From the NCBI GenBank assembly GCA_019634615.1, contig JAHCAZ010000002.1:62001-126000 (forward strand): a stretch of 64,000 nt of DNA, read 5' to 3'. This DNA is from Opitutaceae bacterium. GTDB lineage: Bacteria > Verrucomicrobiota > Verrucomicrobiia > Opitutales > Opitutaceae. Within the stretch, counting starts at the first letter, position 1. Each line of letters begins with the position of its first letter. This document shows positions 233 through 18,179 of the stretch, in pieces. The notes beneath the pieces were generated by a model. It searched no databases. It saw nothing but the letters and a program-made list of their open reading frames with translations, and had not been told where the DNA came from. The position numbers were made by a program, and so were the translations under genes.

Positions 233-1327
233 TCAATCGAACCGGATCGATTTCACCTCATCCACCAACGCCAAAATATTCTCGAACGGCACATCGGGCT
301 CCAACACGTGCGTCGGCGCGATCATCACCCGGGCGCCGTGGTCGCGGTGCAACGCGGCGATCTCGCGCACGCGTCTCCGCACATCGTCCGGCGTGCCGAA
401 GGGCATCGTCGTCTGCGTGCCGACCATGCCGCTCAGGCCAAGTGTCTTGCCGAAGCGCTTGGTGAGGGCAGCCGCGTCCATGCACTCGGGTTGCACCGGG
501 TTGAGAATATCCACACCGACCTCGATCAGCTCCGGGACGATGGGCATGATGTCGCCGTCGGAATGGTAATGCACCCACACCTTGCGTCCGCCCGAGGCCT
601 CGCGGATCGCGGCGATGACCTTGGCCAGGCGCGGCTTGAGGTGCTTCCGCCACATGGGCACCGACAGCAACATGCCGGTCTGCATGCCGACGTCGTCGCC
701 CAACCCGATGATGTCGATGCCGGCCTTCGCGAAAGCGCGGCCCACGTTGCAGGAGCGCTCCGTGAACCAGTCCAGCAGCCAGTCGGCGATGCCGTTCTCC
801 TCAGCGAGGTCCTGGAATAGGTTGTCCATGCCGCGGGCGTACCACGACAGCTCGAAGGTCGTGCACTCCATGCCGGCGAAGGCCACCTTCCCGCGCGTGT
901 GCACCTGCTGCATCTTTTTCTGCAGCGCGGCGTAGTGCTTCGGGTCGGACGTGTCGGGCCAGGGGAGTTTCTCCAGCTGCGCAACGCTGGTGATCTTGTC
1001 CAGCGGGTGCAGCATCACCCGGAAATGGTACGCCTTGCCCACGGTGCCGGCGGGCGGCTCGACGTGCGCGATGCAGAACGGGCCCACCTCCGCGTTGGCC
1101 GGCAGCACGGTGCCGATCTCCGCGAGGGCGTCGCGCCACTGCTCCGGGTTCTCGTCGTAGCCGACCCAGTCGAAGCCGAAATCCGTCTCGAACGACAATT
1201 CCGGGCTGCGCACGCCGGTCTTCTCCTCGATGAGGTCGGCGACCGGCGGGGTGACGGGCACGTTGAGGGGCAGCCAGGCGGGCTTGCCGCCGGACATCAT
1301 GGCGTGGAAGTTTTCGCGGGCGTTCAT
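233..1327 (-). CDS. URO-D superfamily methyltransferase, HSDG type
   Basis: Protein of 364 residues with the URO-D/MtaA-like TIM-barrel layout: N-terminal 'MNARENFHAMMSGG', a central HSDG at 255-258, then 'GVDILNPVQP' and a C-terminal 'DVPFENI' segment. Family members move methyl groups to or from a corrinoid protein. It lacks the HemE 'RQAGR' signature and therefore is unlikely to make haem. The zinc-type HxCG motif is replaced by HSDG. The start overlaps the stop of the upstream homocysteine methyltransferase by four bases (ATGA), so the two are translationally coupled. It is the last gene of a leftward operon. The methyl donor is unknown. Confidence 0.88.
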   Translation of the reverse strand: MNARENFHAMMSGGKPAWLPLNVPVTPPVADLIEEKTGVRSPELSFETDFGFDWVGYDENPEQWRDALAEIGTVLPANAEVGPFCIAHVEPPAGTVGKAYHFRVMLHPLDKITSVAQLEKLPWPDTSDPKHYAALQKKMQQVHTRGKVAFAGMECTTFELSWYARGMDNLFQDLAEENGIADWLLDWFTERSCNVGRAFAKAGIDIIGLGDDVGMQTGMLLSVPMWRKHLKPRLAKVIAAIREASGGRKVWVHYHSDGDIMPIVPELIEVGVDILNPVQPECMDAAALTKRFGKTLGLSGMVGTQTTMPFGTPDDVRRRVREIAALHRDHGARVMIAPTHVLEPDVPFENILALVDEVKSIRFD

Positions 1328-2220
1328 TTTGAAAAGTGCTTCGCCATCGCGGCGATGTGCTCGGGCGTGCTGCCGCAGCAACCGCCGACGATCCGGGCAC
1401 CGGCGGCGAGGAGACGCGGCACAACCGCCGCAAACTGCGCGGCGGATTCGTCGTAGCAAATCTTGCTGTCGACGAGCCGCGGCGAGCCGGCGTTAGGCTG
1501 GACGATGACCGGTCGGCCGGCCGCGTGGGCCACCAGTTCCGCGGTCAGGGCCACATAGTCATCGAGCGACAGCTCGGTGCCGCAGTTGGCGCCCACGATG
1601 TCGGCCCCGGCGGCGAGCACGGCCGGAAACGCGTCGGCGACCGTCGTACCCATCATGGTGCGGTAGCCAGCCGCGGATTTCTGGAACGTGTACGTGGCGA
1701 TCACGCACTCCGCGCCGGCGGCCTTGGCGGCGGTCACGGCGAGCGCGGCCTCGGCGGGATCGGACATGGTCTCGACCAAGATGAGATCGGCCCCGCCCTC
1801 GAGGAGCGCGGCGGCCTGCTCGCGGAAGGCGAGGGCAACTTCGTCCGCGACCGCGTCACCCAGCGGCTCGAGCATGCCGCCGAAGGGGCCGATGTCACCG
1901 AGCACCCAGGCGCGCTCACCGGCCACGGCCCGGGCGAGGCAGGCACCGGCCACGTTGAGGTCGCGCACCCGCGCGCCGGCGCCGTGGTTGCCGAGGACAT
2001 ACGAGGTGCCGCCAAAGGTGTTGGTCGTGAGCAGGTCGGCGCCGGCCGCAAGGTAGGCGCGGTGCACGTCGGTCACCCGGTCGGCGTGATCGATATTCCA
2101 CAGCTCACCGCCGGCCCCGGGCGCGAGGCCGCGTTGCTGCAGCTGGGTGCCGGTGGCACCGTCGCCGAGGATGGGCCGGCGGGCGAGGGTGGCGCGGAAG
2201 CTGGCGACCCGCGACGTCAT
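1324..2220 (-). CDS. Homocysteine S-methyltransferase (stand-alone)
   Basis: Protein of 298 residues matching the homocysteine-binding barrel found in BHMT and in the N-terminus of MetH. It starts with 'LGDGATGTQL' near residue 18 and has the zinc thiolates C213 ('GANCG') and C281-C282 ('GGCCG'). Known family chemistry is methylation of homocysteine to methionine. The folate, cobalamin and activation modules of MetH are absent here, but a corrinoid protein and an activator lie a few kilobases away, so it may take its methyl group from that protein (inference). Four-base ATGA overlaps on both sides place it inside a tightly coupled operon. The start was chosen at the ATG overlapping the upstream stop, not a longer frame to 2298. 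Confidence 0.9.
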   Translation of the reverse strand: MTSRVASFRATLARRPILGDGATGTQLQQRGLAPGAGGELWNIDHADRVTDVHRAYLAAGADLLTTNTFGGTSYVLGNHGAGARVRDLNVAGACLARAVAGERAWVLGDIGPFGGMLEPLGDAVADEVALAFREQAAALLEGGADLILVETMSDPAEAALAVTAAKAAGAECVIATYTFQKSAAGYRTMMGTTVADAFPAVLAAGADIVGANCGTELSLDDYVALTAELVAHAAGRPVIVQPNAGSPRLVDSKICYDESAAQFAAVVPRLLAAGARIVGGCCGSTPEHIAAMAKHFSK

Positions 2221-3302
2221 GCCGAGAGCCGGTGGACCTCGTCGAGAAACTCCGCGGCGCGGTCGGCGTTGCGGAAGGGCTTGCCGACGCAGATCCACAG
2301 GCCGTCCGGCCCGAGCTCGCGCAGGCAGTGGAGCGCGTCGGCGGCGTCCTCGGCGAGGATCTGCACGGCCTTGTGGGCCTCACGGCAGCGGCGATACACG
2401 TGCAACCACTGCGAGGCGTTGCCCTGGCCGGCGCCGTAGACCCACTGGACGGCATTCAGGCCCGGCAGGGCGAGCATCGTCTCTAGGTGCTGCAGGGCGT
2501 TCGGGCCGTCGAGGTGGAAGATGGTGCGCTCGAGCGGAGCCATCTCGAACTCGATCGAGGGCCGGATGAGCTCCTGGCCGACGTCCTTCGAGACCAGGCA
2601 CCAGAAATCGCAGCTCGGCACGTAGACCGGGCCGTTGTGCAGGTAGTTGGTCCACGTCGTACCCGGCATGCCGAGCGCCGTGAGGCGCTGGTGCAGACGA
2701 CGGAAGCCCTCCACGTAGGCGCGGGCGCAGTGCAGGCTGGCGCGGAAGACGAGGTCGCGCTCATCCACGAGATCGAGGCAGAGATCCTCGGGCCCGCGCA
2801 GGCCCGAGAGCATGTCGAAGCTCCCGTGCAGGTCGGGCATGGCGACGTAGTAGCGGCCGGCGAAGCGCTCGGCGGCGAGCGTGATCATCGCGTCGATCGT
2901 GCGCCAGTACTCGTTGTCGAAGTTCGGCGCCGTCTCGAGGAAACGCTCCCAGTCCGCGCGGTCGTGGATCGTGTGCTGGCACCAGCTCGTGGTCTCGCCG
3001 AAGACGAGCTCGGCGTTGAACAGCGTCGAGGTGAGATCGGGGCCCACGTTCGGTGTCCACGACGGCACCGTGTCGCCGAGGAAGACCGAGGTCTCGAGGC
3101 GGGCGAGGGCGGACTCGACCTGGAACTCCACGTCCATCCACCGGTCGCGCAGGGTCGCGTGGTTCGAGCGCGGCGCGCGCAGCGAGTGCTTTTGCTCGAT
3201 CCACAGGCTGACGGGCGGCCGGTCGAGCCGGCCGCCCTGCCAGAAGGCGTCGAAGCGGGCGCTGGCGGCGGCGAGCGAGAAGTAGTGGTTGCGCGGGTTC
3301 AT
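2217..3302 (-). CDS. Divergent URO-D-like protein, HLDG type
   Basis: Protein of 361 residues, a divergent relative of the URO-D methyltransferases. The C-terminal half shows 'FHLDGPNALQHL' with HLDG at 263-266, followed by a 'QWVYGAGQG' strand. The usual NPVQ and FG(T/D)PE segments are absent. It begins 'MNPRNHYFSLAAASARFDAFW' instead of the common M-T-x-x-E-R-F start, so it forms a subgroup of its own in this island. Homologues are sometimes annotated as trimethylamine corrinoid protein 2, but no substrate can be read from the sequence. It heads a leftward run and its stop overlaps the start of the homocysteine methyltransferase (ATGA). Confidence 0.82.
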   Translation of the reverse strand: MNPRNHYFSLAAASARFDAFWQGGRLDRPPVSLWIEQKHSLRAPRSNHATLRDRWMDVEFQVESALARLETSVFLGDTVPSWTPNVGPDLTSTLFNAELVFGETTSWCQHTIHDRADWERFLETAPNFDNEYWRTIDAMITLAAERFAGRYYVAMPDLHGSFDMLSGLRGPEDLCLDLVDERDLVFRASLHCARAYVEGFRRLHQRLTALGMPGTTWTNYLHNGPVYVPSCDFWCLVSKDVGQELIRPSIEFEMAPLERTIFHLDGPNALQHLETMLALPGLNAVQWVYGAGQGNASQWLHVYRRCREAHKAVQILAEDAADALHCLRELGPDGLWICVGKPFRNADRAAEFLDEVHRLSA

Positions 3303-3314
3303 GCGGAGATCGGG

Positions 3315-3384
3315 TGGCTACGAGCGTGAGCGAGTGGGGGGAAGGCGGGCGTTGCCGGGGGTCACTCGCTCACGCTCGTAGCCA
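3315..3384. repeat. Long inverted repeat, 22-bp arms (copy 1)
   Basis: Perfect 22-bp arms at 3315-3336 (TGGCTACGAGCGTGAGCGAG then TG) and 3363-3384 surround a 26-bp loop. A second copy with 21-bp perfect arms sits at 62680-62745. There is no T-tract, so it is better read as an interspersed palindromic element than as a classical terminator, although it could end transcription between the two leftward genes. Confidence 0.85.
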
Positions 3385-3399
3385 CGGTTGGGACAAGGT

Positions 3400-4656
3400 T
3401 TACTTGCCGGCGTTGAAGTCGCGGATGGCGTCGACCATCGCGACGATGTTGGCGACCGGCGTGCGGGCCTGGATGTTGTGGATGGTGTTGAAGACGAAGC
3501 CGCCGTTGACCGAGAACGTGCGGAGGCGCTCGGTGACCTGGGCGCGCACTTCCTCAGGTGTGCCGAACGGGAGGACGCGCTGTGTGTCCACGCCGCCGCC
3601 CCAGAAGGTCACGCGGTCGCCGAAGTCGGCCTTGAGCCGCGGCGCCTCCATGTCCTTGGCGGAGCACTGCACGGGGTTGAGGATGTCGAAGCCGCACTCG
3701 ATGAACTGATTCATGAACGGCCGGATGGCGCCGCAGGAGTGCTTGAAGGTCTTCCACTTCGTGTGTGCATGGATCCAGTCGTTGACGCGCTTGTAGTACG
3801 GCGCGTACAGGTCGGCGAAGGTCGCGGGCGAGCAGAACTGCGAGCTCTGCGTGCCGAAGTCGGTGCCGCAGATCACGATCACGTCGATCAGGTCGCCGAA
3901 CGTGTTCGCGTAAGTCTCGAGGTTCTTCAGTGCGACCTCGCACTGGAAGTCGAAGATCTGGTGCACGTAGTCGCGGCGCTCGACGAGGGAGACGTACCAC
4001 TCGCTCACGTCGCGGATGCCCTTGGGGTGCTTGAGGAAGGCGGCGGGCACGAGGGCGATGTCGCCGAAGCCGGTGCCGCCGACGCCGCCGACGATGGCGC
4101 GCTCCTCGCCCTGGAGACGGGTGAGCTCGGCTTTCCAGTGGGCGATCTCGGCGGCGTCCACCGGCTTGAATTCCTCGCAGTTGTCGGCGGGGTTGAGCTT
4201 GTCCTCGTCGATCGGCTCCTGGCGGATGATCGCGTCGAAGAAATACCCGCCGGCCGGCATGTGTCCGCTGGGCGGCACGGAGGTGTCACCCTCGGGGAAG
4301 ACGTAGACGTCACCGGACGGATCCTCGCGCGGGCCGAAGCCCTTGGGCACGAGCATGACCTGGCCCCACGGCGCGCGCCACTCGCGCCAGTCCTCGTTCT
4401 TGAAGCCGAACATCGTGCCGCGGGCCTTCATGCCCACGCAGTCGGAGCCGAGCACGCGCGCGAGGTCGTCCTCCACCTCGCCCAGCATCTGGTAGGGCTC
4501 GACCACCTTCACCGGGTGATTGGGCAGGCCGTAGTGCTGGCGCAGGGCGGCCACGCAGCTGACGTGCATGCTGGTCAGGCCGGTGCTGCCGATGTCGACG
4601 GGGACGGGGCCGGACTGGTGGTTGAGGGCGCGGCGGACTTTTTCGCGGGAGGTCAT
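3400..4656 (-). CDS. URO-D superfamily methyltransferase, zinc HSCG type
   Basis: Protein of 418 residues, longer than the usual 340-370. The metal-site motif HSCG at 306-309 follows 'KTFK', and C331 ('NPVQCS') comes soon after. An 'FWGGGVDTQ' strand and 'FGTPEEVRAQV' follow, as in MtaA/CmuA-type methyltransferases. Histidine and cysteine here match the zinc ligands of thiol-methylating family members, which sets it apart from the HxDG paralogues. About 60 extra residues lie between roughly 95 and 185, with a proline- and glycine-rich stretch. Leftward, between the 22-bp inverted repeat and the 78-bp repeat. Confidence 0.88.
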   Translation of the reverse strand: MTSREKVRRALNHQSGPVPVDIGSTGLTSMHVSCVAALRQHYGLPNHPVKVVEPYQMLGEVEDDLARVLGSDCVGMKARGTMFGFKNEDWREWRAPWGQVMLVPKGFGPREDPSGDVYVFPEGDTSVPPSGHMPAGGYFFDAIIRQEPIDEDKLNPADNCEEFKPVDAAEIAHWKAELTRLQGEERAIVGGVGGTGFGDIALVPAAFLKHPKGIRDVSEWYVSLVERRDYVHQIFDFQCEVALKNLETYANTFGDLIDVIVICGTDFGTQSSQFCSPATFADLYAPYYKRVNDWIHAHTKWKTFKHSCGAIRPFMNQFIECGFDILNPVQCSAKDMEAPRLKADFGDRVTFWGGGVDTQRVLPFGTPEEVRAQVTERLRTFSVNGGFVFNTIHNIQARTPVANIVAMVDAIRDFNAGK

Positions 4657-4673
4657 GGGGGGCGGGGGTTGGG

Positions 4674-4751
4674 GTAGGGGCGCACTTCGTGTGCGCCCTT
4701 GGGCCGCATCCGCGGATGAAGCCGAAGGGCGCAGGCGAGCTGCGCCCCTAC
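4674..4751. repeat. 78-bp GTAGGGGCGCAC palindromic element (copy 1)
   Basis: Starts GTAGGGGCGCAC and ends GTGCGCC-like/GCGCCCCTAC, so the ends are inverted copies. A smaller hairpin (CGCAC...GTGCG) lies at the left. Copies occur at 15776-15854, 41048-41129 and 48096-48173, with a shorter inverted copy at 51640-51691. This copy lies between two leftward genes. Confidence 0.85.
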
Positions 4752-4797
4752 CGGTGAGGTCCGATCGGAATGGCGAAGCGGGTTTGCATGGCCCCGC

Positions 4798-5880
4798 TCA
4801 GCCTTTCAGGCCGAACAGCTTTTCCTTGAGGTCGAGGTAGTAGAGGTAGTCGTCGGGATTGACGTTCGGCGGGCAGCGGTGGTCGCAGAACGGGATGAAC
4901 CCGCCCTTGGCGACGTAGGGCGCGAGCGACTCGAGCCATTGCCGGATCTCCTGGCGGTTGCGGCCGAGGACCATCTTGTCGACGCCGCCCATGATGCGGA
5001 GCTCGGGGCCCCACTTGTCGAGGGACTCGCCCGGGTGACCCGAACCGTTGACCTCCCAGGGGAACATCGTGTTCACGCCGCCGGCGAGGAAGTGCGGGAT
5101 GAGCGGGCGCACGTCGCCGTCGCAGTCGATCCACCAGATGTCCACGCCGTGGGCGCGCAGCTTGTTGCGGATGCGCTGGTAGCGGGGCACGACGATGTCG
5201 CGGAAGAAATTAACGGAGACGAGCGGGCCGCTCTTGTAGCAGATGTCCTCCCAGCCGGCGGCATAATCGAACTTCACGTGCGGCAGCACCTGGTCGAGGA
5301 AGTCCTCCACGAGGACGCACGAGGTCTCGACGATGTCCTCGACCATCTCGGGATAGTCGAACACCGAGTACGCGAGGCCCTCGACGGTGAGCATGTCGCG
5401 CACCTTGCCGATCATCGAGCCGGACCAGACGCCGAGCGGGTAGTCGCGGTCATTCGGGTGCTCGGCGAGGATGGCGGCGACGTCGACCTTGCGGTCGGGA
5501 TGTTTCCGGTCGAAGCGCTCGGCCTTCACCTTCGCCCAGTCGTCGGGCGTCTTCACCGTGGCCTCGAGGTAGTGCGGGATCGTGTCGTGGCCGTCGAGCG
5601 GGACCTCGGCGATCAGGCCGTCGCCGTTGCGCAGGATGCGCGTGGTGGCGGTGCGGCGGATCTCCTCCGGCGGGAACACCGGGTGCATCCAGCGCCCGTA
5701 GACGGTGCCGGTGCGGTCGAAGTTCAGGAAGACGTCGGCGTCGTTGTTGTTCGTGATGCCGTGGTCGCGGAACATCGGCCACAGCTTGAAGTTGTCGTCC
5801 CAGTAGCCGAATTCCATGTTGAAGCACCGGTCCACGGGCTGGTGGTGCATCTGGCGGCGGAAGCGCTCGCGCTCGGTCAT
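4798..5880 (-). CDS. URO-D superfamily methyltransferase, DCDG type
   Basis: Protein of 360 residues from 'MTERERFRRQMHHQPVDR', the usual family start. A GTG at 5928 would add 16 residues, but they are proline- and lysine-rich and have no ribosome site. The central motif is D252-C-D-G255-D, with no histidine at the metal-site position. It shares 'GGVDK' and a C-terminal 'CDHRCPPNVNPDDY' with the proteins at 14597 and 17061, so these three form one subfamily within the island. Likely corrinoid-linked methyl transfer with an aspartate-based active site; substrate unknown. Leftward, 60 bases after the next paralogue upstream. Confidence 0.87.
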   Translation of the reverse strand: MTERERFRRQMHHQPVDRCFNMEFGYWDDNFKLWPMFRDHGITNNNDADVFLNFDRTGTVYGRWMHPVFPPEEIRRTATTRILRNGDGLIAEVPLDGHDTIPHYLEATVKTPDDWAKVKAERFDRKHPDRKVDVAAILAEHPNDRDYPLGVWSGSMIGKVRDMLTVEGLAYSVFDYPEMVEDIVETSCVLVEDFLDQVLPHVKFDYAAGWEDICYKSGPLVSVNFFRDIVVPRYQRIRNKLRAHGVDIWWIDCDGDVRPLIPHFLAGGVNTMFPWEVNGSGHPGESLDKWGPELRIMGGVDKMVLGRNRQEIRQWLESLAPYVAKGGFIPFCDHRCPPNVNPDDYLYYLDLKEKLFGLKG

Positions 5881-5940: not shown

Positions 5941-7026
5941 TCAGTAATTGCCGTATTTTTCGACGAACCCGATGATCGCCTTGTAGGTCGACCAGCTCAC
6001 CTGGGGCGGCACGGAGTGGTCGGAGTGGTAGGCGTAGCCGCGTGTCGCCATGCCGGCGGCGAACTTGGTGCGGATTTCCTCCTCGAGCAGGTCGAGGTCG
6101 TTGGTGGCCATCTTCATCACGTCGATGTTGCCGAACATCGCGAGGCGGTCGCCGTGCGTGGGCGCAAACTTGCGGATATCCATGCCGGCCTTGGCCTCGA
6201 TGGGCTGCAGGCAGTCGAACCCGGCCTGGATGTACAAATCCAGCACCCCGCTCACGCGTCCGTCGGTGTGGTAGATCACCTTCATGCCGCGGGCGTGGGC
6301 CCAGTCGGCCATCTGCTTGTGGAAGGGCCAGACGAGCTCCTTGTACATGGCCGGCGAGCACATGGTGGCGTGGTTGAACGCCATGTCGCCGTAGATCCAG
6401 AGGCCGTCGGGCTCGACGCCCTCGTCGATGACGGCCTGCCACGAGCGGAGCACGACCTCGGTGTGCACGGCGACGACGTCGCGAATCCACTCGGGATCCT
6501 CGATCATGGCCATGAGGCAGACTTCGTCGCCGAGGATCTTGCGCAGGGCCTCGAAGCCCTCGACGCCGGAGAGGTGGGTCCACTGGCCGAGCTTGCGCGC
6601 GGCGCGGTAGCGGGCGGCGGCCAGCTTGGTGTCCACCTGGTTTGGCGCCGCGAGCATGGCGGGCCGGTAGGTCTTTTCCCAGACCTCGCGGCTGGTGCAG
6701 CCGAAGCCGACGTGCTCGGGCGTGCCCGAGCGGCCCTTCCAGTAGCGGGCGATGCCGCCCCAGGCGTCGCGGACCGTCTCGGTCTCGGCGTCCTGCCTCA
6801 GCACCTCGCGCTGGCCGGGGAAGATCGGCGGCCAGGACCAGCACAGCACGGCGAAGTCGGCGTCCAGCAGGCGCAGCACATCATGATGATCCCACTGGAG
6901 CCCCTCTTTCTGCCAGCGGGTGATGGTCTCGGGCCAGAACGTGTCCTGCCGCGGGATTCGATCCTGGTCGCGGCGCGCGAACATGCGGTTCACGCGCTCA
7001 CGACCGGTCAGGGCGGTGGCGCTCAT
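5941..7026 (-). CDS. URO-D superfamily methyltransferase, HTDG type
   Basis: Protein of 361 residues. It begins 'MSATALTGRERVNRMFARRD', carries HTDG at 253-256 after 'GMKVIY', and has 'CLQPIEAKAGMDIRKF' followed by 'FGNIDV'. The C-terminus contains 'YHSDHSVPPQVSW', again the histidine-aspartate pattern seen in the HxDG group. It lies 39 bases downstream of the corrinoid protein gene on the same strand, so it is the methyltransferase most closely linked to its likely partner. Substrate not identifiable. Confidence 0.88.
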   Translation of the reverse strand: MSATALTGRERVNRMFARRDQDRIPRQDTFWPETITRWQKEGLQWDHHDVLRLLDADFAVLCWSWPPIFPGQREVLRQDAETETVRDAWGGIARYWKGRSGTPEHVGFGCTSREVWEKTYRPAMLAAPNQVDTKLAAARYRAARKLGQWTHLSGVEGFEALRKILGDEVCLMAMIEDPEWIRDVVAVHTEVVLRSWQAVIDEGVEPDGLWIYGDMAFNHATMCSPAMYKELVWPFHKQMADWAHARGMKVIYHTDGRVSGVLDLYIQAGFDCLQPIEAKAGMDIRKFAPTHGDRLAMFGNIDVMKMATNDLDLLEEEIRTKFAAGMATRGYAYHSDHSVPPQVSWSTYKAIIGFVEKYGNY

Positions 7027-8092: not shown

Positions 8093-9724
8093 ATGAACAC
8101 CACCCTCCACCTCGAGACGCCCGACGGGCGCACCACGGTCACGCTGACCCCCGCCGACACGAAGCTGCCGCTTTCGGAGGTGCTGGCCCACCGCGGCCAT
8201 CCGCTCAACACGCGCTGCGGCGGCCGCGGCCTCTGCGGCGGCTGCGAGATCGGCCTGCGGTCCGGTGCGCTCGTGCGCACGACCGACGGCGCCCGGGTCG
8301 GGCCCTCGGCCGACGATCGCCTGCGCTCCTGCCAGCTCCGGCTGCCGGAGGGCGGCGAAGCGACGGTCAAGATTCCCGCACGGTCGCTCCTGAAGCACGA
8401 GCCGGCGGTCGTGGCCGAGTTCAAGATCAACGTGCCCTGGGCCAACGACCCGCTCGAGCCCGCCGCCCGCGTCGGCGCCTGCGTCGACATCGGCACGACC
8501 ACCGTCGCCCTCATGCTCGCCGATCTCCGGACCGGCAAGGTCCTCGGCGAGGCCTCCGCCTTCAACGCCCAGATCCGCTACGGCGAGGATGTGCTCACGC
8601 GCATCCAGATGTGCTACCAGAATCCCGACGCCGTTAAACAGCTCCAGCGCGCCGTGACCGTCGAGACGATGCAGCCGCTCCTCGCGGAAGCCTGCAAGGA
8701 GGCGGGGCTCACGCCGGCGGACGTCGGCGTCCTGACCGTCGCCGCCAACACCACGATGCAGCACCTGCTCGCCGGCGTGGACCCGAGCCCGCTCGGCGTG
8801 CATCCGTTCACGGCAGTCTTCCTCGAGCATCGTGAATACACCCCGGCCGACCTCGGCCTGGCCTTCGGCGGCGCCGGCGCGAAAGTGCACCTGCTGCCCG
8901 GCCCCGCGGCGTACGTCGGCGCCGATCTCTCCGCCGGACTCGTCGCCACGGGCATGCTCTATGACGAGGGCCCGGTGCTGCTCGTCGACGTCGGCACCAA
9001 CGGCGAGATCATCGCCAAGGTCGGCGACCGCCTCATCGGCTGCGCCACCGCCGCCGGCCCGGCCTTCGAGGGTGCGGGGCTCACGAGCGGCACGCGCGGC
9101 GTGAAGGGCGCGATCGAGCGCGTGACGATGCGCAACCACCCCTACACCGTGGACCTCGGCGTCATCGGCGACGTCGCTAAGCCCATCGGCATCTGCGGCT
9201 CGGCCTACGTTGACTTCCTCTGGGAGGCGCGCCGCACCGGCATCGTGCAGGGGAACGGGCGGTTCGCGGACGATTTCGTCGCCCAGGCAGGTTCGCTCGT
9301 GCAGGCCGACGAGTACGGCCGCAAGCTCCAGCTCCACGCGCGCGGCGCCTCGGGCCCCATCTGGGTCTCCGAGGTCGACATCGCCCGCCTGCTTCAGGCG
9401 AAGGCCGCCATCGCCGCGGGCATCAACACGCTGCTCGGCCTCCTTGGCGTCGCCGCGCCCGACGTGAAGAAGCTCTACCTCGCCGGCGGATTCGGCATGC
9501 ACCTCTCCCTCGGCCACGCCATCGGCTGCGGCCTGCTGCCGGGCTTCACCCCCGAGCAGATCCACGTCGTCGGCAACACCTCGCTCGGCGGCGCGTTCCT
9601 CGCGCTGCAGGACCGCAGTCTCCTCGAGGAGATGAAGTCCGCCTGTGCGCGCATGGAATCCATCGAGCTCAACCTCCAGCCCGGCTTCGAGGACGCCTAC
9701 ATCGACCAGCTCATGCTGCCATGA
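8093..9724 (+). CDS. Reductive activator of corrinoid proteins (RACE)
   Basis: Protein of 543 residues. An N-terminal [2Fe-2S] ferredoxin domain has ligands C42, C48, C51 and C80 ('CGGRGLCGGC'). The rest is the ASKHA-type ATPase domain of RamA/RACE proteins, with 'DIGTTT' at 133-138, a second 'DVGTNGEI' motif and 'LAGGFG' near the C-terminus. Family role: ATP-driven reduction of inactive Co(II) corrinoid back to Co(I). The plant-type [2Fe-2S] domain marks the bacterial O-demethylase/CoFeSP activators, not the archaeal RamA with [4Fe-4S] centres. The start is the ATG at 8093; a TTG two codons earlier is less likely. Divergent from the corrinoid gene it probably serves. Confidence 0.95.
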   Translation: MNTTLHLETPDGRTTVTLTPADTKLPLSEVLAHRGHPLNTRCGGRGLCGGCEIGLRSGALVRTTDGARVGPSADDRLRSCQLRLPEGGEATVKIPARSLLKHEPAVVAEFKINVPWANDPLEPAARVGACVDIGTTTVALMLADLRTGKVLGEASAFNAQIRYGEDVLTRIQMCYQNPDAVKQLQRAVTVETMQPLLAEACKEAGLTPADVGVLTVAANTTMQHLLAGVDPSPLGVHPFTAVFLEHREYTPADLGLAFGGAGAKVHLLPGPAAYVGADLSAGLVATGMLYDEGPVLLVDVGTNGEIIAKVGDRLIGCATAAGPAFEGAGLTSGTRGVKGAIERVTMRNHPYTVDLGVIGDVAKPIGICGSAYVDFLWEARRTGIVQGNGRFADDFVAQAGSLVQADEYGRKLQLHARGASGPIWVSEVDIARLLQAKAAIAAGINTLLGLLGVAAPDVKKLYLAGGFGMHLSLGHAIGCGLLPGFTPEQIHVVGNTSLGGAFLALQDRSLLEEMKSACARMESIELNLQPGFEDAYIDQLMLP

Positions 9725-10879: not shown

Positions 10880-10883
10880 CCCC

Positions 10884-12184: not shown

Positions 12185-13228
12185 TCAGGCCTTCCGGAAA
12201 TCGGTCGGCTTGTGGTCCTTGGCGTAGGCCAGCATCGCCCGCAGGTTTTCCGGGGGCGTGTTGGGCGAGATCTCGCAGCCCGCGCCCACGATGAAGTACT
12301 GGCCGCTGGTCTCGTGGCAGCGCCGGCAGGCCTCGTAGACCTTCTCGGGCGTGCCCTCGAGCAGGTCGGTGATGGTCGAGACATTGCCGGCCAGCGTGCG
12401 CGTCGGCCCGAGCTGCTCGCGCGCGAGCGCGAGGTTGGCGGGGAAATCGATCTCGTAGATGTCGACCGGCAGCTCCGCGGCCTTGGGGTAGAGCTTGTCG
12501 ATGCGCCCGCACATGTGCTGGCGCAGCAGGACGCCGGGGTGGTTGCGCTTGATGGTGTCGAACACGCGCTTCTGCTCCGCCCACAGGAATTCCTCGTAGC
12601 GCACCGGCCCGATCAGGCCGGCCGCGGCGTCGCTCATGCCGATCGTGTCGGCGCCGGCCGCGATCTGCGCCGGGGCGTAGGCGATGGCGACATCGGCACA
12701 GAAGCGCAGCAGGTCGTGCGCGAAGCCCGGGTCGTCCTCGAAATCCAGCATGATCGTGTTGAGCCCGCGCAGCTCGGCGGCGAGGGCGAGCGGACCCTCG
12801 ATCCAGCCCACGATCGACATGCCCGGGCCGGCCTCGCGGCGCATGATCTCGATGCTCTTCACGCGGTCGTGCATGCGCCCGCCATTCAGCGGGTCGGGCA
12901 CCTTGAAGGTGCGCAGGCGCAACTTGTCGGACAGCGCTGCGCGGTCCTCGTTGATCGCCGGGCCCTGGTCCGTGAACCAGTCCACGCTGCCCTCGCCGGC
13001 GATGTCGATCACCTCGCGCGCGGGATCGGAGCAGGTCAGCAGGCAGTCGAGGCCGAAGTCGGCCACGAGCTTCAACTGGGCCTCCGCCATCTTGCGGCCG
13101 TCCTTGGTGTAGTCGATGAAGGGGATGCCCGCGTGCTTGGCGGAAAACATCATCGCCATCGGCTGGAACGGCAGGCGGTCCACGGCTTCGCCGCGAATAG
13201 TGCGGCGGACGCGTTCGATCGAGGTCAT
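12185..13228 (-). CDS. MtaA/CmuA-type corrinoid methyltransferase (HMCG, zinc)
   Basis: Protein of 347 residues, the member closest to methylcobamide:thiol methyltransferases. It has H238-M-C240-G and a third ligand C318 in 'VGAGCEISPNTPPENL', the zinc set of MtaA/MtbA. 'VDIYEIDFPANL' and 'RTLAGNVST' strands complete the family core. In known members zinc activates a thiol that takes the methyl from methyl-cobalamin, so this is the best candidate for the second (acceptor-side) step of the island. The acceptor here is unlikely to be coenzyme M in such a bacterium. The start at ATG 13228 gives the canonical 'MTSIERVRRTIRG'. Convergent with the gene to the left and divergent from 13311. Confidence 0.9.
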   Translation of the reverse strand: MTSIERVRRTIRGEAVDRLPFQPMAMMFSAKHAGIPFIDYTKDGRKMAEAQLKLVADFGLDCLLTCSDPAREVIDIAGEGSVDWFTDQGPAINEDRAALSDKLRLRTFKVPDPLNGGRMHDRVKSIEIMRREAGPGMSIVGWIEGPLALAAELRGLNTIMLDFEDDPGFAHDLLRFCADVAIAYAPAQIAAGADTIGMSDAAAGLIGPVRYEEFLWAEQKRVFDTIKRNHPGVLLRQHMCGRIDKLYPKAAELPVDIYEIDFPANLALAREQLGPTRTLAGNVSTITDLLEGTPEKVYEACRRCHETSGQYFIVGAGCEISPNTPPENLRAMLAYAKDHKPTDFRKA

Positions 13229-13310: not shown

Positions 13311-14480
13311 ATGAAACCCATGACGCCCAAACAACGGCTCTGCGCCGCCCTCGACCGCAAGCCCACCGATCACCTGCCCGCCACGACGCATCACATCATG
13401 CGTTATTACATGGACAAATACCTCCCGGGCAAAACCGACGACGAGTTCTTCGAGATCTTCGGCCTCGACCCGATCACGTGGTTCGTGGCGCACAAGCCTA
13501 TCCCTGGTTCGGGCTGCCGGTTCGAGGAGCAGCACGTGCCGGCCGGTTTCATGGAGGCGCGCCGGCTCGAATCCGACACCTGGCGCTTCGAGCACCAGGA
13601 CGTGCCCGGCCGCCAGTACGCCACCACGCGCCACTCCATCGTCACGCCGCGCAAGACCCTCACCCTCGAGCTCCAGAGCAACGAGTACACCGGCTGGCTC
13701 TCCGAGCGGCTCGTCAAGGAGAAGTCCGACATCGACCTCATCGCCGAGTTCGCCCCGCAGCCGATCTGCGACGTCGAGGCCGTCAACCGCCATGCCGCGA
13801 AGTACGGCGACCGCGCCCTCATGCGCGGCCACATCAACTGCTTCGACCTCTACGGCCAGCCCGGCTGCTGGCAGGACGCGTGCGTGCTCTACGGCGTCGA
13901 GGAGATGATCCTCGCGACCTACGACGACCCCGAGTGGGTGCATGCCTTCCTTCGCATCATCTGCGACCGCAAGGTGAAGTACGCCGACTCGCTCAAGGGC
14001 GCCAACTACGACCTGCTCGAGCACGGCGGCGGCGACGCCTCCTCGACCGTGATCTCGCCCAAGGTGTTCGAGGAGTTCGTGGCGCCCTACGACCGCGAGG
14101 TCATCGCCCACGCCCGCGCCGCCGGCCAGCGCATCGTGTACCACACCTGCGGCGGCATGATGCCGATCCTCGAGCGCCTCGTCACCCTCGGCTCCAACGC
14201 CCTCGAGACCTTCACCCCGCCCGCCATGGGCGGAGACATGAACCTCGCCGAGGCCAAGCGCCGCATCGGCGACAAGGTCTGCTTCATCGGCGGCTTCGAC
14301 CAGAACCGCTTCTTCACCACCGCCACGCCCGAGGAGACGCGCGCCGAGGTGCGCCGCTGCTTCCAGGAGGCGGGGCAGGGCGGCGGCCTCATCCTCAGCC
14401 CGTCCGACCACTTCTTCGAGGCCAAGCCCGAGCTTCTGCACGCCTTCGCCGACGAGGCCCGGAAGTGCACGTACAACTGA
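13311..14480 (+). CDS. URO-D superfamily methyltransferase, zinc HTCG type
   Basis: Protein of 389 residues beginning 'MKPMTPKQRLCAALDRKPTD'. H278-T-C280-G-G gives the histidine-cysteine pair of the zinc subgroup, but no C-terminal 'GCxxxPxTPxEN' site is present. Instead it ends 'LSPSDHFFEAKPELL'. It is therefore a third HxCG protein but not a close copy of the one at 12185. Likely corrinoid-linked methyl transfer. Rightward, separated by about 80 bases from the divergent gene at 12185-13228, where both promoters must lie. Confidence 0.88.
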   Translation: MKPMTPKQRLCAALDRKPTDHLPATTHHIMRYYMDKYLPGKTDDEFFEIFGLDPITWFVAHKPIPGSGCRFEEQHVPAGFMEARRLESDTWRFEHQDVPGRQYATTRHSIVTPRKTLTLELQSNEYTGWLSERLVKEKSDIDLIAEFAPQPICDVEAVNRHAAKYGDRALMRGHINCFDLYGQPGCWQDACVLYGVEEMILATYDDPEWVHAFLRIICDRKVKYADSLKGANYDLLEHGGGDASSTVISPKVFEEFVAPYDREVIAHARAAGQRIVYHTCGGMMPILERLVTLGSNALETFTPPAMGGDMNLAEAKRRIGDKVCFIGGFDQNRFFTTATPEETRAEVRRCFQEAGQGGGLILSPSDHFFEAKPELLHAFADEARKCTYN

Positions 14481-14500
14481 AACCAAACTGACCAAACCAT

Positions 14501-14570
14501 TTTACAGGAGGAAACGGAGTTAACGGAGAGACCTGAATTCCTGCCTCCGTTCCCTCTGTTTCCTCCTTTA
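14501..14570. repeat. Palindromic GGAGGAAACGGAG repeat
   Basis: TTTACAGGAGGAAACGGAG at the left is mirrored by CTCCGTT...GTTTCCTCCTTTA at the right with about 15 bases between. Pieces of the same text appear at 23837-23880. It lies between two same-strand methyltransferase genes. Confidence 0.65.
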
Positions 14571-14596
14571 AATATCCGAACTTCCACCGTTTCCAA

Positions 14597-15724
14597 ATGA
14601 CACCGCTTGAACGCTTCCACGCCTGCATGAAATACCAGCCCGCCGACCGGGTGCCCAACCACGAGGTCGGCGTCTGGGTCCAGACCAAGCAGCGTTGGCG
14701 CGAGGAAGGCCTCGCGACCGACGACATGCACTGGGACTGGTTCACGGGCGAACCCCGCTGGGACCTCGATCCCCGCGAATACATCGACGTCAACTTCGGC
14801 ATGGTCCCGCCCTACGAGGAGAAGGTCCTCAGCAAGGAGGGCGACACCGAGATCATCCAGCGCGCCAACGGCGTCATCTCCAAGGCGCTCATCACCGGCG
14901 CGGCCGAGGGCATGCGCATGAGCATGGATGAGTACATCAGCTTCCCGGTCACCACGCCGGCCGACTTCCAGGAGCTGAAAAAGCGATTCCGCGCGGATTG
15001 TCCCGTGCGCTACCCGGCCTACTGGCAGGAATTCCTGCGCAAGGGCTGGGACCTGCGCCAGCACCCGCTCGTCCTCGGCCGCAACTGCAGCACGCTCGGC
15101 TACTACTGGCGCGCCCGCGAGTGGATGGGCACCGAGAATCTCAGCTACGCCTGGTACGACGAGCCCGCTATGATGCACGAGATGATGGAGTTCGTCACCG
15201 ACTTCACCATCGAGACCGCGCGGCCGATCCTCGAGGCCGGTGTTAAGCCGGACTACGTCTTCATCAACGAGGACCTGAGCATGAAGAACGGCCCGCTGCT
15301 CAGCCCCGAGACCTACCGCACCTTCATCTTTCCCGAGCTCAAGCGCCTCGTCGCCTGGCTCAAGGCCAACGGCGTGAAGTGGATCATCATCGACAGCGAC
15401 GGCAACTGCGAGCTCGTCATCCCGTACTTCATGGAGGCCGGCGTCGACGCGATCTGGCCGCTCGAGCGCGCGTCGGACATGGATCCGCTCGCCCTGCGCA
15501 AGAAGTTCGGCCGCAGCCTCCACCTCTGGGGCGGCGTGGACAAGCGCGAGCTCGCCAAGGACAACGCCGCGATCGACGCCCACCTGCGCACCCTGCAGCC
15601 GCTCATCGCCGACGGCGGTTTCATCCCGACGGTGGACCACCTCGTCCCCCCCGACGTCCCGCTCGCCAACTTCGAGCACTACATGCGCCGCAAGCACCAA
15701 CTCCTCCGCGGCGAAGCCTTCTAG
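14597..15724 (+). CDS. URO-D superfamily methyltransferase, DSDG type
   Basis: Protein of 375 residues. The central motif is D266-S-D-G269-N. 'LWGGVDKRELAKD' and 'TVDHLVPPDVPLANFEHYM' follow, closely matching the proteins at 4798 and 17061. No histidine is present at the metal position, so if it binds a metal it does so differently from the HxCG group. 'FINEDLSMKNGPLLSPETY' (about 222-240) is the family's mid-barrel active-site strand. Rightward; preceded by one palindrome and followed by the second copy of the 78-bp element. Confidence 0.87.
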   Translation: MTPLERFHACMKYQPADRVPNHEVGVWVQTKQRWREEGLATDDMHWDWFTGEPRWDLDPREYIDVNFGMVPPYEEKVLSKEGDTEIIQRANGVISKALITGAAEGMRMSMDEYISFPVTTPADFQELKKRFRADCPVRYPAYWQEFLRKGWDLRQHPLVLGRNCSTLGYYWRAREWMGTENLSYAWYDEPAMMHEMMEFVTDFTIETARPILEAGVKPDYVFINEDLSMKNGPLLSPETYRTFIFPELKRLVAWLKANGVKWIIIDSDGNCELVIPYFMEAGVDAIWPLERASDMDPLALRKKFGRSLHLWGGVDKRELAKDNAAIDAHLRTLQPLIADGGFIPTVDHLVPPDVPLANFEHYMRRKHQLLRGEAF

Positions 15725-15775
15725 AACCGGATTGAGGTAATCGACCACGCATGGACCCCAAGAATACGTCCCTAG

Positions 15776-15854
15776 GTAGGGGCGCACCTCGTGTGCGCCC
15801 TTCGGCTTCATCCGCGAATGAAATCGGCAGGGCGCAGTCAAGCTGCGCCCCTAC
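15776..15854. repeat. 78-bp-type palindromic element (copy 2)
   Basis: 79 bases beginning GTAGGGGCGCACCTCGTGTG and ending GCTGCGCCCCTAC. Differs from the copy at 4674 by a few substitutions in the middle. Lies in the gap between two rightward methyltransferase genes. Confidence 0.85.
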
Positions 15855-15916
15855 GGGTCCAGGCCAGGCTCCGTGCCATCTGTGAAACCCGTGGTTAAGC
15901 ACAACCCCATTATCCC

Positions 15917-16963
15917 ATGAGCCGACAACTCGCCCTCGACACGCTCGCGTTGAAGTCCGTCCCGCGGTTCGCCCGCACGGAATACAGCCTGGAATACCAG
16001 CAGGCGGGCCTGAAGCGCACCGCCGGGCCCGAGCCGGACACCAACGCCGTGCTGCGCGACCTCTACGCGCGGTGGGACCTCGACTTCCTGTGGACCGTGC
16101 AGGACGGCCTGCGCACCGACTGGCTGCAATGGGGCCGCGCGACCGACATGGGCCACGCCGAGTACGCGTCCGACGGCAGCGACCTGCGGAAGCCGAACCA
16201 CTGTCCTTTCGAGACCGTCGAGGAGGTCTGGGCCTTCGACGCCGTGACGGAGTACGGCCTGCCCACCATGGCCGAGCAGGTGACGGCCTACCAGCAGTGG
16301 ATCGACCAGAAGCGCCGCGACTTCCCGGACCAACTCTGCACCGGCGGCTACTACAAGACCATCGTCTCCGGCGCGATCCAGGCCTTCGGCTGGGACATGC
16401 TCCTCGAGGCCGCGGCCGATCGCGACAAGATGGAAAAGGTCTTCGACTCGTTCTACCGCCGCACGAAATTCCACATGGATGCGTGGGCGCAGACCGACGT
16501 CGAGGCCATCATCCAGCACGATGACTTCGTGTGGACCGCGGGCGCCTTCATGCGGCCCGAGATCTACCGCAGCGTGATCATCCCGCGCTACGCCGAGCTG
16601 TGGAAGCCGCTCAAGCGCGCGGGCAAGAAGGTCCTGTTCTGCTCCGACGGCGATTTCCGCGAGTTTGCGGCCGACATTGTGGCCGCCGGCGCCGACGGGC
16701 TCATCTTCGAGCCGGTGATGGAATTCGGCGAGATGGTGGAGAAGTTCGGCCAGTCCACCGTCCTCGTCGGCAGCGCCGTGGACTGCCGCGACCTGACCTT
16801 CGGCGACTGGGCCACGGTCAAGGCCGCGGTGGACCGCTCGCTCGCCCTCGCCCGCACCTGCCGCGGCGTGATCCTCGCCACCGGCAACCACCTCCCCGCC
16901 AACATCCCGGCCCCGATGCTCGAACAATACCGCGCCTACGTGCAGGCCAACCGGAACCGCTAA
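15917..16963 (+). CDS. URO-D superfamily methyltransferase, CSDG type
   Basis: Protein of 348 residues. The N-terminus 'MSRQLALDTLALKSVPRFAR' and the early 'WDLDFLWTVQDG' differ from the other members. The central motif is F241-C242-S-D-G245-D; a cysteine stands where others have histidine. It ends with 'LATGNHLPANIPAPML', the substrate-side loop. Two unrelated palindromic repeats flank it. Superfamily membership is clear from the overall strand order; substrate and even reaction direction are unknown. Confidence 0.84.
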   Translation: MSRQLALDTLALKSVPRFARTEYSLEYQQAGLKRTAGPEPDTNAVLRDLYARWDLDFLWTVQDGLRTDWLQWGRATDMGHAEYASDGSDLRKPNHCPFETVEEVWAFDAVTEYGLPTMAEQVTAYQQWIDQKRRDFPDQLCTGGYYKTIVSGAIQAFGWDMLLEAAADRDKMEKVFDSFYRRTKFHMDAWAQTDVEAIIQHDDFVWTAGAFMRPEIYRSVIIPRYAELWKPLKRAGKKVLFCSDGDFREFAADIVAAGADGLIFEPVMEFGEMVEKFGQSTVLVGSAVDCRDLTFGDWATVKAAVDRSLALARTCRGVILATGNHLPANIPAPMLEQYRAYVQANRNR

Positions 16964-16975
16964 GTCCCCCAATTA

Positions 16976-17050
16976 TATGTGGAAATCAGGAAGGCAGGAA
17001 AAGGCCCGCTAATCCGGTTTCTGCTTTCCTAATTTCCACATTCCAAAACT
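16976..17050. repeat. Palindrome ATGTGGAAATCAGGAA
   Basis: ATGTGGAAATCAGGAAGGCAGG is mirrored by CTTTCCTAATTTCCACAT with small mismatches. Intergenic, between two rightward methyltransferase genes. Confidence 0.6.
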
Positions 17051-17060
17051 CCTCAATCCC

Positions 17061-18179
17061 ATGCGCTGGAATCGCGAACAATACCTCGACCTCATGACCT
17101 TCGGCCACGCCGAACGGCCCATGTTCACCGAACTCTTCGGACCGCTTGTCGGCCTCGATGCCGAATGGCGCGCGCAGGGTGCGACCGAGGCCGAGATCAA
17201 CATGAGCGCGTTCGACTGGGACTATGTGCCCTACGTCTTCTGCGGCGGCTACACGGGGATGCGCGGCCCGGCCCCGGTCTTGCTCGAGGACACGCCGGAG
17301 ATCCGCCGCGAGCGCGACTGCCTCGGCCGCGAGATGCTGCTGCTCAAAAAGACGGCCACGATCCCGCTGCCGCAGAACTTCCCGGTGCAGACCGTGGACG
17401 ACTGGCTGAAGGTGAAGCCGTTCTTCACCTTCACGCCCGACCGCATCAAGTGGGACGAGGTCGAGAAGGCCCGCAAGGCCCAGGCCGAGGGCAGCCTCGT
17501 CGTGGCGCACATTCCCGGCGCGTTCGACATCCCGCGCGAGCTGATGGGCGAGGAGATCGCGTGCCTCGCCTATTACGAGCAGCCTGAACTCATGGCCGAC
17601 ATTTTGGCCACGATCACCGACACGTGCATGCGCGTGCTCGAGCCAATCAGTGCCAAGCTCAAGATCGACCAGCTCATGGTGCACGAGGATTTCGCGGGCA
17701 AGTCCGGCCCGATGGTCGGCCCGGTCCAGGTGCGCGAGTGCTTCCAGCCGCTGTACCGCAGTGTCTGGGACATGCTGCAGTCGCGCGGCGCACGGCTCTT
17801 TGAGCAGGACACCGACGGCAACATCAACCCCGTCATCCCCGCGCTCCTCGATGCCGGATTGAACAGCATCTACCCGATGGAGCCGGCGGCTGGCATGGAC
17901 ATCGTCGAGTTGCGCCGCATCTACGGCAATCGCCTCGCGATGCGCGGCGGCATCGACAAGCACGTCATCCGGCGGAGCCGCGAGGAGATCCGCAAGGAGC
18001 TCGAGTACAAGCTGCACCCGTCGCTTCGGGCCGGCGGCTGCGTCTTCAGCCTCGACCACCGCATTCCCAACGGCACGCCGATCGAAAACTACCGCTACTA
18101 CGTCGCGCTGGGCCGCGAAATGCTCGGCCTCCCCCCGCTCGACCCCAAACGCACCGGCTGGGCGCGGATGGCGATGTGA
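17061..18179 (+). CDS. URO-D superfamily methyltransferase, DTDG type
   Basis: Protein of 372 residues. The central motif is D250-T-D-G253-N, with 'MRGGIDKHVIRRSREEIRKE' and 'SLDHRIPNGTPIENYRYYV' downstream, which puts it with 4798 and 14597. 'MVHEDFAGKSGPMVG' (about 206-220) resembles the active-site strand of those two. A cysteine-rich N-terminal loop ('YVFCGGYTG') is specific to this copy. Last methyltransferase gene of the island; a terminal-inverted-repeat element follows it. Confidence 0.87.
   Translation: MRWNREQYLDLMTFGHAERPMFTELFGPLVGLDAEWRAQGATEAEINMSAFDWDYVPYVFCGGYTGMRGPAPVLLEDTPEIRRERDCLGREMLLLKKTATIPLPQNFPVQTVDDWLKVKPFFTFTPDRIKWDEVEKARKAQAEGSLVVAHIPGAFDIPRELMGEEIACLAYYEQPELMADILATITDTCMRVLEPISAKLKIDQLMVHEDFAGKSGPMVGPVQVRECFQPLYRSVWDMLQSRGARLFEQDTDGNINPVIPALLDAGLNSIYPMEPAAGMDIVELRRIYGNRLAMRGGIDKHVIRRSREEIRKELEYKLHPSLRAGGCVFSLDHRIPNGTPIENYRYYVALGREMLGLPPLDPKRTGWARMAM

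What the first reader, a model, noticed from the sequence alone, without database searches (positions are those of the whole stretch)
233..18179. Many-to-one corrinoid methyl-transfer island: twelve URO-D paralogues, one corrinoid protein, one activator
Seen: twelve superfamily genes, one MtaC-like corrinoid protein and one RACE within 18 kb. Established: methylotrophic and acetogenic systems normally use one or two methyltransferases per corrinoid protein. Inference: a broad-substrate demethylase system in which each paralogue serves one methylated compound and all share a carrier. This is the best candidate here for an undescribed system.
Basis: partly seen in the sequence, partly recalled or inferred. 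Interest (0 to 1): 0.85.

Follow-up and report, generated by a model that had tools for sequence, protein, structure and literature searches.

The report
Twelve demethylases sharing one B12 carrier
An Opitutaceae-type bacterium carries, in one 18-kb block whose gene order recurs in eleven other genomes, twelve very different UroD-like genes around a single predicted vitamin-B12 carrier gene and its predicted activator gene, which likely act as a funnel that would strip methyl groups from many compounds into one folate pathway.

Summary
In detail: twelve UroD-like ORFs (U2 and U7 remote), one corrinoid protein (CP) and one RACE lie in window 233-18179. Missed: a homocysteine methyltransferase (HMT) inside, and, just left of the window, AraC, MTHFR, a methyl-THF:corrinoid methyltransferase (MeTr)-like gene, formate-THF ligase and HMT-MTHFR. 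In the genome (92% complete) only MetH and this CP match B12-binding_2, one RACE was found, and at least 34 UroD relatives besides HemE. The order recurs in 11 of 34 RACE loci. The paralogues share 13-31% identity, with pN/pS 0.11-0.62. Ten carry orthologue-invariant putative metal triads of six types; one is His-Cys-Cys. Of 54 family genomes with three or more UroD matches, 49 have RACE. Best reading: a many-to-one methyl funnel to THF in a genome with COX1-family oxidases and no acetyl-CoA synthase match. A carrier shared by three enzymes (MtqC) and clusters of about three UroD enzymes are known. Docking and substrates are untested. New variant of a known kind.

The parts
233..1327 (-). U1, UroD superfamily; putative metal triad H255-D257-H340
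   Evidence: PF01208 78 bits; triad invariant in 12 sequences
1324..2220 (-).
   Evidence: PF02574 215 bits; best NCBIfam PRK08645, below cut-off
2217..3302 (-). U2, remote UroD relative; HxDG present, no third ligand found
   Evidence: no Pfam hit; leave-out profile 21 bits for best orthologue
3400..4656 (-). U3, UroD superfamily; H306-C308-H393; also kept in reduced islands
   Evidence: PF01208 60 bits
4798..5928 (-). U4, UroD superfamily (Pfam below cut-off); D268-D270-H350; doubled in L082
   Evidence: 18.1 bits; leave-out profile 131 bits for the window copy
5941..7026 (-). U5, UroD superfamily; H253-D255-H337
   Evidence: PF01208 58 bits
7066..7704 (-). CP, corrinoid protein (B12-binding_2 cap + B12-binding domain; DLHDIG at residue 99)
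   Evidence: PF02310 and PF02607; 1y80 E 2e-54; only match besides MetH in the genome
8093..9724 (+). RACE, corrinoid reductive activator
   Evidence: PF14574 and PF17651; AcsV-like, below cut-off; only match found in the genome
9851..10879 (+). U6, UroD superfamily; H234-D236-C314
   Evidence: PF01208 36 bits
10884..12158 (+). U7, remote UroD relative without recognisable metal motif; highest pN/pS
   Evidence: no Pfam hit; leave-out profile 23 bits for best orthologue; fold match UroD 1.2e-5, model pLDDT 69
12185..13228 (-). U8, MtaA/CmuA-like; H238-C240-C318
   Evidence: PF01208 200 bits; MtaA 4ay7 E 2.5e-21 with H, C and C aligned
13311..14480 (+). U9, UroD superfamily; H278-C280-H367
   Evidence: PF01208 88 bits
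14597..15724 (+). U10, UroD superfamily; D266-D268-H348; kept in reduced islands
   Evidence: PF01208 65 bits; model pLDDT 85.5, UroD/MtaA fold
15917..16963 (+). U11, UroD superfamily; C242-D244-H325
   Evidence: PF01208 39 bits
17061..18179 (+). U12, UroD superfamily; D250-D252-H333
   Evidence: PF01208 41 bits

Best explanation
The block likely works as a many-to-one methyl funnel: twelve UroD-like genes stand around one corrinoid-protein gene and one RACE gene, and each paralogue would move a methyl group from its own substrate onto that one predicted shared carrier. Shown by sequence: gene content, single carrier and activator among the matches in the genome, conserved order, divergence of the paralogues. 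Inferred: Co(I)-CP is methylated by each paralogue; RACE re-reduces CP after oxidation to Co(II); the MeTr-like protein encoded about 5 kb left of the window (C26:56284-57150) moves the methyl to tetrahydrofolate; the MTHFRs, FolD and formate-THF ligase turn methyl-THF into methylene- and formyl-THF, formate and ATP; HMT and HMT-MTHFR divert part to methionine. Substrates are inferred to be mostly O-methyl compounds of plant matter (methoxy sugars or aromatics), with U8 likely acting on a sulfur compound.
For: Genome-wide: 2 PF02607 matches (MetH and this CP), 1 RACE, 31 PF01208 matches including HemE, plus U2, U4, U7 and L048:6450-7511. Order conserved in 11 of 34 loci. Reduced islands keep CP and RACE with U3 and/or U10 (L090, L094, L097, L099, L102). 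pN/pS 0.11-0.62 for all 15 genes. Seven of nine paralogues scanned score best with MtaA-type methyltransferase models, below cut-off. Metal triads of six types, each invariant within sets of 12-20 orthologues. Acceptor module AraC, MTHFR-DUF5981, MeTr-like, Fhs, HMT-MTHFR left of the window; a MeTr-like gene is beside the island in 5 of 10 genomes fetched, and PF00809/PRK07535 relatives lie inside the islands of L087 (same genome as G140) and L092 and beside that of L090. FolD present. Three or more UroD matches goes with RACE: 49 of 54 against 17 of 96. Precedent for a shared carrier: MtqC.
Against: No biochemistry. U7 has no metal motif and U2 only two of three positions, and both are weak relatives; they may have other roles. 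U4 and U12 hit no NCBIfam model. The MeTr-like gene scores below the curated NCBIfam cut-off (113 of 259 bits), and none was in the stretches fetched from G021, G135 and G149 (the G115 and G039 contigs end early). The MAG is 92% complete, and a CP without a PF02607 match would be missed. Of 20 family genomes with ten or more UroD matches, 7 have three or more PF02607 matches and 4 have more than one RACE, so one carrier is not universal. No formate dehydrogenase match reached its cut-off (3 weaker ones), so the fate of formate is open. Substrate class rests on ligand type and neighbours only.
Confidence: 0.65

Rival explanations
1. [quoted passage not shown]
For: Same gene kinds (several UroD enzymes, one CP, one RACE). 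HMT and HMT-MTHFR belong to or adjoin the island. U8 has the His-Cys-Cys site and resembles MtaA.
Against: Only 1 of 12 paralogues has His-Cys-Cys, reported as invariable in type 1 clusters except for several Mlps1. The type 1 clusters first described lack a folate methyltransferase, while here a MeTr-like gene is close by. They were reported only in obligate anaerobes; this genome has four COX1-family matches.
Confidence: 0.15
2. Only a core (U3, U10, perhaps U8) uses the CP; the other paralogues are UroD-fold enzymes for other reactions that merely accumulated at the locus.
For: Reduced islands keep only U3, U8 or U10 of the twelve with CP and RACE. U7 and U2 are remote and lack a full motif. 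UroD itself is a decarboxylase.
Against: Gene order of all twelve is kept in 11 other genomes. Seven further paralogues (U1, U4, U5, U6, U9, U11, U12) also carry invariant triads at the corresponding positions. UroD number tracks RACE.
Confidence: 0.15
3. The system runs mainly in reverse: CP takes methyl from methyl-THF and the paralogues methylate acceptors.
For: Corrinoid methyl transfer is reversible (Mlp2 was assayed in reverse). HMT genes are present.
Against: A MetH (in two genes) is present for methionine. Fhs, MTHFR and an AraC regulator lie together next to the island, which looks like an inducible catabolic module (inference).
Confidence: 0.05

Closest known systems
MtqC-MtqA-RamQ quaternary amine system of Eubacterium limosum (PMC8604678, passages read)
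   Same: Several substrate-specific methyltransferases share one CP, one RACE and one THF methyltransferase; the THF methyltransferase and activase genes lie with methyl-THF oxidation genes.
   Different: MttB superfamily and quaternary amines, three enzymes shown, genes dispersed, acetogen. Here UroD superfamily, twelve clustered genes, no acetyl-CoA synthase match.
Type 1 mlp gene clusters (PMC10418091, results and discussion read)
   Same: Several UroD-superfamily enzymes with one CP and one bacterial-type RACE in one cluster.
   Different: Two to three enzymes, almost always His-Cys-Cys, no THF methyltransferase in the clusters first described, obligate anaerobes, no conserved gene order. 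Here twelve, mostly other sites, MeTr-like gene adjacent, fixed order.
Three-component O-demethylase and chloromethane systems of acetogens and Methermicoccus (OdmB, VdmB, MtvB, MtoB, CdmB; PMC13222342 and PMC8630106, passages read)
   Same: UroD-superfamily methyltransferase I, CP, THF- or CoM-methyltransferase II, activating enzyme.
   Different: The operons seen have one or two methyltransferase I genes per CP (MtoB1 and MtoB2 with MtoC); Acetobacterium dehalogenans has 26 different methyltransferase systems. Sequence kinship of U1-U12 to these was not tested, except a weak U8 match to CdmB.
LigM-MetF-LigH module of Sphingobium SYK-6 (PMC6888825, passages read)
   Same: Methyl groups from methoxy compounds enter THF and are thought to go through MetF, FolD and formyl-THF synthetase.
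   Different: LigM transfers the methyl straight to THF; here a corrinoid carrier would feed the same kind of module. A LigM/DesA-like gene exists elsewhere in this genome (L045:4374-5726).

Membership tests
Corrinoid-dependent methyltransferase systems (MT1, CP, MT2, RACE) | Substrate methyltransferase of the UroD (or MttB) superfamily | tested here: met
   9 of 12 over the Pfam cut-off; U4, U2, U7 weaker; 7 of 9 scanned nearest to MtaA-type models
Corrinoid-dependent methyltransferase systems (MT1, CP, MT2, RACE) | Corrinoid protein with cap and B12-binding domains | tested here: met
   PF02607 and PF02310; DLHDIG at residue 99 (that DxHxxG is the B12 motif is recalled)
Corrinoid-dependent methyltransferase systems (MT1, CP, MT2, RACE) | Methyl-CP to THF methyltransferase nearby | tested here: inconclusive
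   MeTr-like gene upstream (PF00809 over cut-off, PRK07535 best but below cut-off); beside the island in 5 of 10 genomes
Corrinoid-dependent methyltransferase systems (MT1, CP, MT2, RACE) | RACE | tested here: met
   PF14574 225 bits; CX5CX2C at residue 42
Corrinoid-dependent methyltransferase systems (MT1, CP, MT2, RACE) | Methyl transfer from substrate to CP | not testable with these tools
   needs purified proteins
Type 1 mlp gene cluster | His-Cys-Cys metal site in the Mlps | tested here: not met
   1 of 12 (U8); rule
Type 1 mlp gene cluster | No THF methyltransferase in the cluster | tested here: not met
   MeTr-like gene adjacent here and inside relatives' islands
Type 1 mlp gene cluster | Orthologues of Mlp2 and Mlp3 | not tested
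   no reference sequences at hand
MtqC-type shared carrier | One CP for several methyltransferases | tested here: inconclusive
   only PF02607 match besides MetH in a 92% complete genome; docking untested
MtqC-type shared carrier | MttB-superfamily methyltransferases | tested here: not met
   no MttB family among the Pfam hits of the twelve
Acetogenic methyl metabolism | Acetyl-CoA synthase | tested here: not met
   no PF03598 match in the genome

The most novel reading that the evidence does not exclude
A universal methyl-stripping hub: one corrinoid carrier serves the twelve clustered paralogues and the twenty-odd scattered across the genome (at least 34 in all), each tuned by its own metal-site chemistry to a different O-, S- or other methyl compound of decaying plant matter, in an oxygen-respiring, non-acetogenic bacterium that burns the methyl groups through folate to formate.
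Probability: 0.3. Interest if true: 0.85.

Novelty: new variant of a known kind. Interest (0 to 1): 0.62.

Why it matters
It would give a route for removing methyl caps from plant-derived compounds in freshwater-type Opitutaceae, place oxygen-sensitive Co(I) chemistry in a genome with COX1-family oxidases, and offer a ready panel of UroD-like enzymes with six kinds of putative metal site for studying how this fold changes substrate.

Tried and rejected
Rejected: that the twelve are recent tandem copies (13-31% identity). That U2 and U7 are unrelated genes (weak profile evidence, and for U7 fold evidence; both remain weak). That the block is a type 1 mlp cluster (metal sites and acceptor differ). 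That the paralogues occur commonly without RACE. That methyl groups feed acetogenesis (no PF03598 match). No cobalamin riboswitch: the only Rfam hits over the gathering score in window, L039 and L040 were Acido-Lenti-1 and DUF3800-VIII RNAs.

Led nowhere: a CP-only tree was poorly resolved; the CP+RACE tree puts 11 of 12 full islands with two truncated ones in one supported clade (98/98), but L089 falls outside with L092, so a single origin is not shown. U10 has no useful sequence match in the PDB. My profile contained all twelve sequences, so its recovery of U2 and U7 was circular; I redid it without them. The multi-genome PF01208 search scored only about 12 candidates per genome, so its counts are lower bounds. 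The genomes in the 49-of-54 test are related and include the window's own, so the p value (5e-19) overstates independence. Neighbours of scattered UroD genes were chosen by hand, 35 of 139, with no control set; 14 of 18 neighbourhoods were sampled, 5 of the 14 held sugar or glycan-breakdown genes, the other 9 did not in what was scanned (for example EF-Tu, LpxB, biotin ligase, nucleoside transporter).
Full report
1. Observation. ORF listing and a coding-potential caller written here give twelve UroD-like genes (here U1-U12), an HMT gene, one CP and one RACE in 233-18179. Pfam recognises 9 of the 12 as PF01208 over cut-off, U4 below it, U2 and U7 not at all. A profile built from the other ten families scores orthologues of U2 and U7 at 21 and 23 bits at best (E 1e-7 and 3e-8, but for searches of 14 sequences; profile-profile probability 84% and 56%), against 131-135 bits for U4 left out in the same way. 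The U7 model (mean pLDDT 69) has UroD structures as its best fold matches (E 1e-5 and weaker); the U10 model (85.5) matches UroD and MtaA clearly. U2 was not modelled. Of nine paralogues scanned against NCBIfam, seven score best with MtaA-type methyltransferase models, all below cut-off, and U4 and U12 hit nothing; the genome's HemE passes the hemE model (372 bits). Pairwise identity of the twelve is 13-31%.

2. What lies outside the window. The window is C26:62001-126000 of a 4.08-Mb, 113-contig genome, 92% complete. Left of the window, on the strand opposite to U1, lie AraC, MTHFR with DUF5981, a MeTr-like PF00809 protein, formate-THF ligase and an HMT-MTHFR fusion (L040:8288-15938). FolD is present once. 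There is no PF03598 (CdhC/acetyl-CoA synthase) match, there are four COX1-family matches, and no formate dehydrogenase match over cut-off (3 weaker ones).

3. One carrier genome-wide. PF02607 finds two proteins: MetH (metH model 1157 bits over 904 aa, its N-terminal HMT part in a separate gene) and this CP. PF14574 finds this RACE only. PF00809 finds MetH and the MeTr-like gene. PF01208 finds 31; with U2, U4, U7 and L048:6450-7511 there are at least 35, or 34 without HemE.

4. Conservation. The RACE found 34 loci in named genomes. At 50% identity or more to the window genes: eleven loci from eleven records carry all twelve UroD genes, CP and RACE in the window's order and orientation (HMT in 8 of the 11; L082 carries U4 twice). 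L088, L103 and L104 hold parts of that order up to a contig or fetch end (L103 with one more UroD-like gene after RACE). L092 has ten of the twelve, lacks U1 and U6, and has an extra U12, a MeTr-like gene and a CobW/ZigA-type GTPase. Reduced islands hold CP and RACE with U3, U8 or U10 (L090, L094, L097, L099, L102; L094 has one more UroD gene); L096 has RACE and U10, and L107 has CP, RACE and HMT without any U. L095, L098 and L100 have U3, RACE and CP in another arrangement; L091 and L093 have RACE and CP only; L105 and L106 are 3-kb contigs with CP. L108-L112, from other phyla, show none of the named genes at that identity. A CP+RACE tree places 11 of 12 full islands and two truncated ones in one supported clade, with L089 and L092 outside: consistent with growth of the island inside one lineage, not proof.

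5. Selection and metal sites. Against two or three partner loci, pN/pS is 0.11-0.62 for all 15 genes, highest for U7 (0.62, 0.29, 0.61) and U2 (0.46, 0.42). U8 aligns with MtaA 4ay7 so that its H238, C240 and C318 face H, C and C (that these are the zinc ligands of MtaA is recalled). At the corresponding positions ten paralogues carry triads identical in all 12-20 sequences of each orthologue set: H-D-H (U1, U5), H-C-H (U3, U9), D-D-H (U4, U10, U12), H-D-C (U6), H-C-C (U8), C-D-H (U11); U2 has H-D without a third, U7 none. The third position was placed by eye; that any of these bind metal is inferred. By the rule reported in PMC10418091, His-Cys-Cys goes with S or Se substrates and replacement of cysteine by carboxylate or a non-ligand with O substrates. 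CdmB works without zinc (PMC13222342), so metal need not be present in every member.

6. In 150 genomes of the family (the window's own included), RACE is in 66. With three or more PF01208 matches: 49 with RACE, 5 without (G036, G056, G103, G106, G145); with fewer: 17 with, 79 without. With two or more: 65 with, 12 without. Of 20 genomes with ten or more, 13 have at most two PF02607 matches (MetH counted) and 7 have three to five; 16 have one RACE and 4 more than one. So few-carrier genomes are the majority, not the rule.

7. Acceptor. In 10 genomes fetched around RACE, a MeTr-like gene is beside the island in 5 (G015, G124, G107, G085, and a more distant one in G140), absent from the stretch in 3 (G021, G135, G149; the G149 contig ends 14 kb away), and the contig ends early in 2 (G115, G039). 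L090 has UroD, MTHFR-DUF5981, MeTr-like, an amidohydrolase and a Rieske protein with a VanA_C domain next to its small island. This ties the island to folate, and weakly to methoxy compounds.

8. Substrate hints. Neighbours: GH2 and GDSL genes left of the window, a GDSL gene after U12 in L101, a mandelate-racemase-type enzyme, SDR and aldo-keto reductase right of U12, and a pectin and uronate locus at about 42-54 kb. Scattered UroD genes sit by glycan or sugar genes in 5 of 14 neighbourhoods sampled (L114, L117, L041, L113, and L120 by a xylose-isomerase-like protein), without a control. One scattered UroD gene is followed on its strand by MTHFR-DUF5981 and a LigM/DesA-like O-demethylase (L045). 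The substrate class is therefore a guess supported by context.

9. Known or new. Closest in logic is MtqC, one carrier for MtpB, MtcB and MtyB with one activase and one THF methyltransferase (PMC8604678, passages). Closest in parts are the type 1 mlp clusters (PMC10418091), which differ in metal sites, acceptor, gene order and host physiology. The C1 module resembles that of SYK-6 (PMC6888825, passages). In strain DCMF's metaproteome 20 MTI, 28 MTII and 24 corrinoid proteins were identified, about one carrier each (PMC9768040, passages). Searches of the held library for Opitutaceae with corrinoid and methyltransferase gave one paper (listing only, a Methylacidiphilum genome), and for Verrucomicrobi with corrinoid and demethyl ten (listing only; six on mercury, none on such an island by title or start of abstract). 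I found no description in print within that library and those searches; several of these list only the top of a longer set.

10. Verdict. A real, conserved and unusual arrangement whose parts are of known kinds. The shared-carrier step is strongly suggested by genome content; methyl transfer, substrates and docking are untested.

Noticed in passing
L045:4374-8516 (G000 contig C27) with AraC at 8623-9459: A UroD gene is followed on its strand by MTHFR-DUF5981 and a 450-aa LigM/DesA-like O-demethylase (566 bits to the syringate model, cut-off 800), with an AraC gene divergent from it: a likely second, B12-free methoxy-to-folate entry.
   Followed up: partly
window 18228-18272 (-), 18356-18400 (+), 54167-54212 (+); L039 1217-1261, 2994-3038: Five Acido-Lenti-1 RNAs (RF01687) over the gathering score, two of them on opposite strands just after U12.
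   Followed up: no
window about 42163-54113: Pectin and uronate locus: GH88/GH28, MFS transporter, pectate lyase-esterase-GH43 fusion (46164-49778), UxaE-like and UxaC, with a TonB receptor upstream at 34996-38070.
   Followed up: no
window 46164-49778: 1204-aa protein with pectic acid lyase, BD-FAE esterase and GH43 with its C2 domain in one chain.
   Followed up: no
window 29262-32261: 999-aa protein with five AhpC/TSA-Redoxin stretches in a row.
   Followed up: no
L043:2118-5896 (G000 contig C1): MetH is encoded as two adjacent genes: a 352-aa HMT part and a 904-aa part with pterin, cap and B12 domains.
   Followed up: partly
G000 whole genome: No dihydropteroate synthase showed up among PF00809 matches, which were only MetH and the MeTr-like gene.
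   Followed up: no
L092:2419-3594: A CobW/ZigA-type GTPase (zinc chaperone-like, below cut-off) sits inside the relative's island next to a MeTr-like gene, which would fit metal-dependent enzymes.
   Followed up: no
L090:4469-5506: Rieske protein with a vanillate O-demethylase C-terminal domain near the MeTr-like and MTHFR genes of a reduced island.
   Followed up: no
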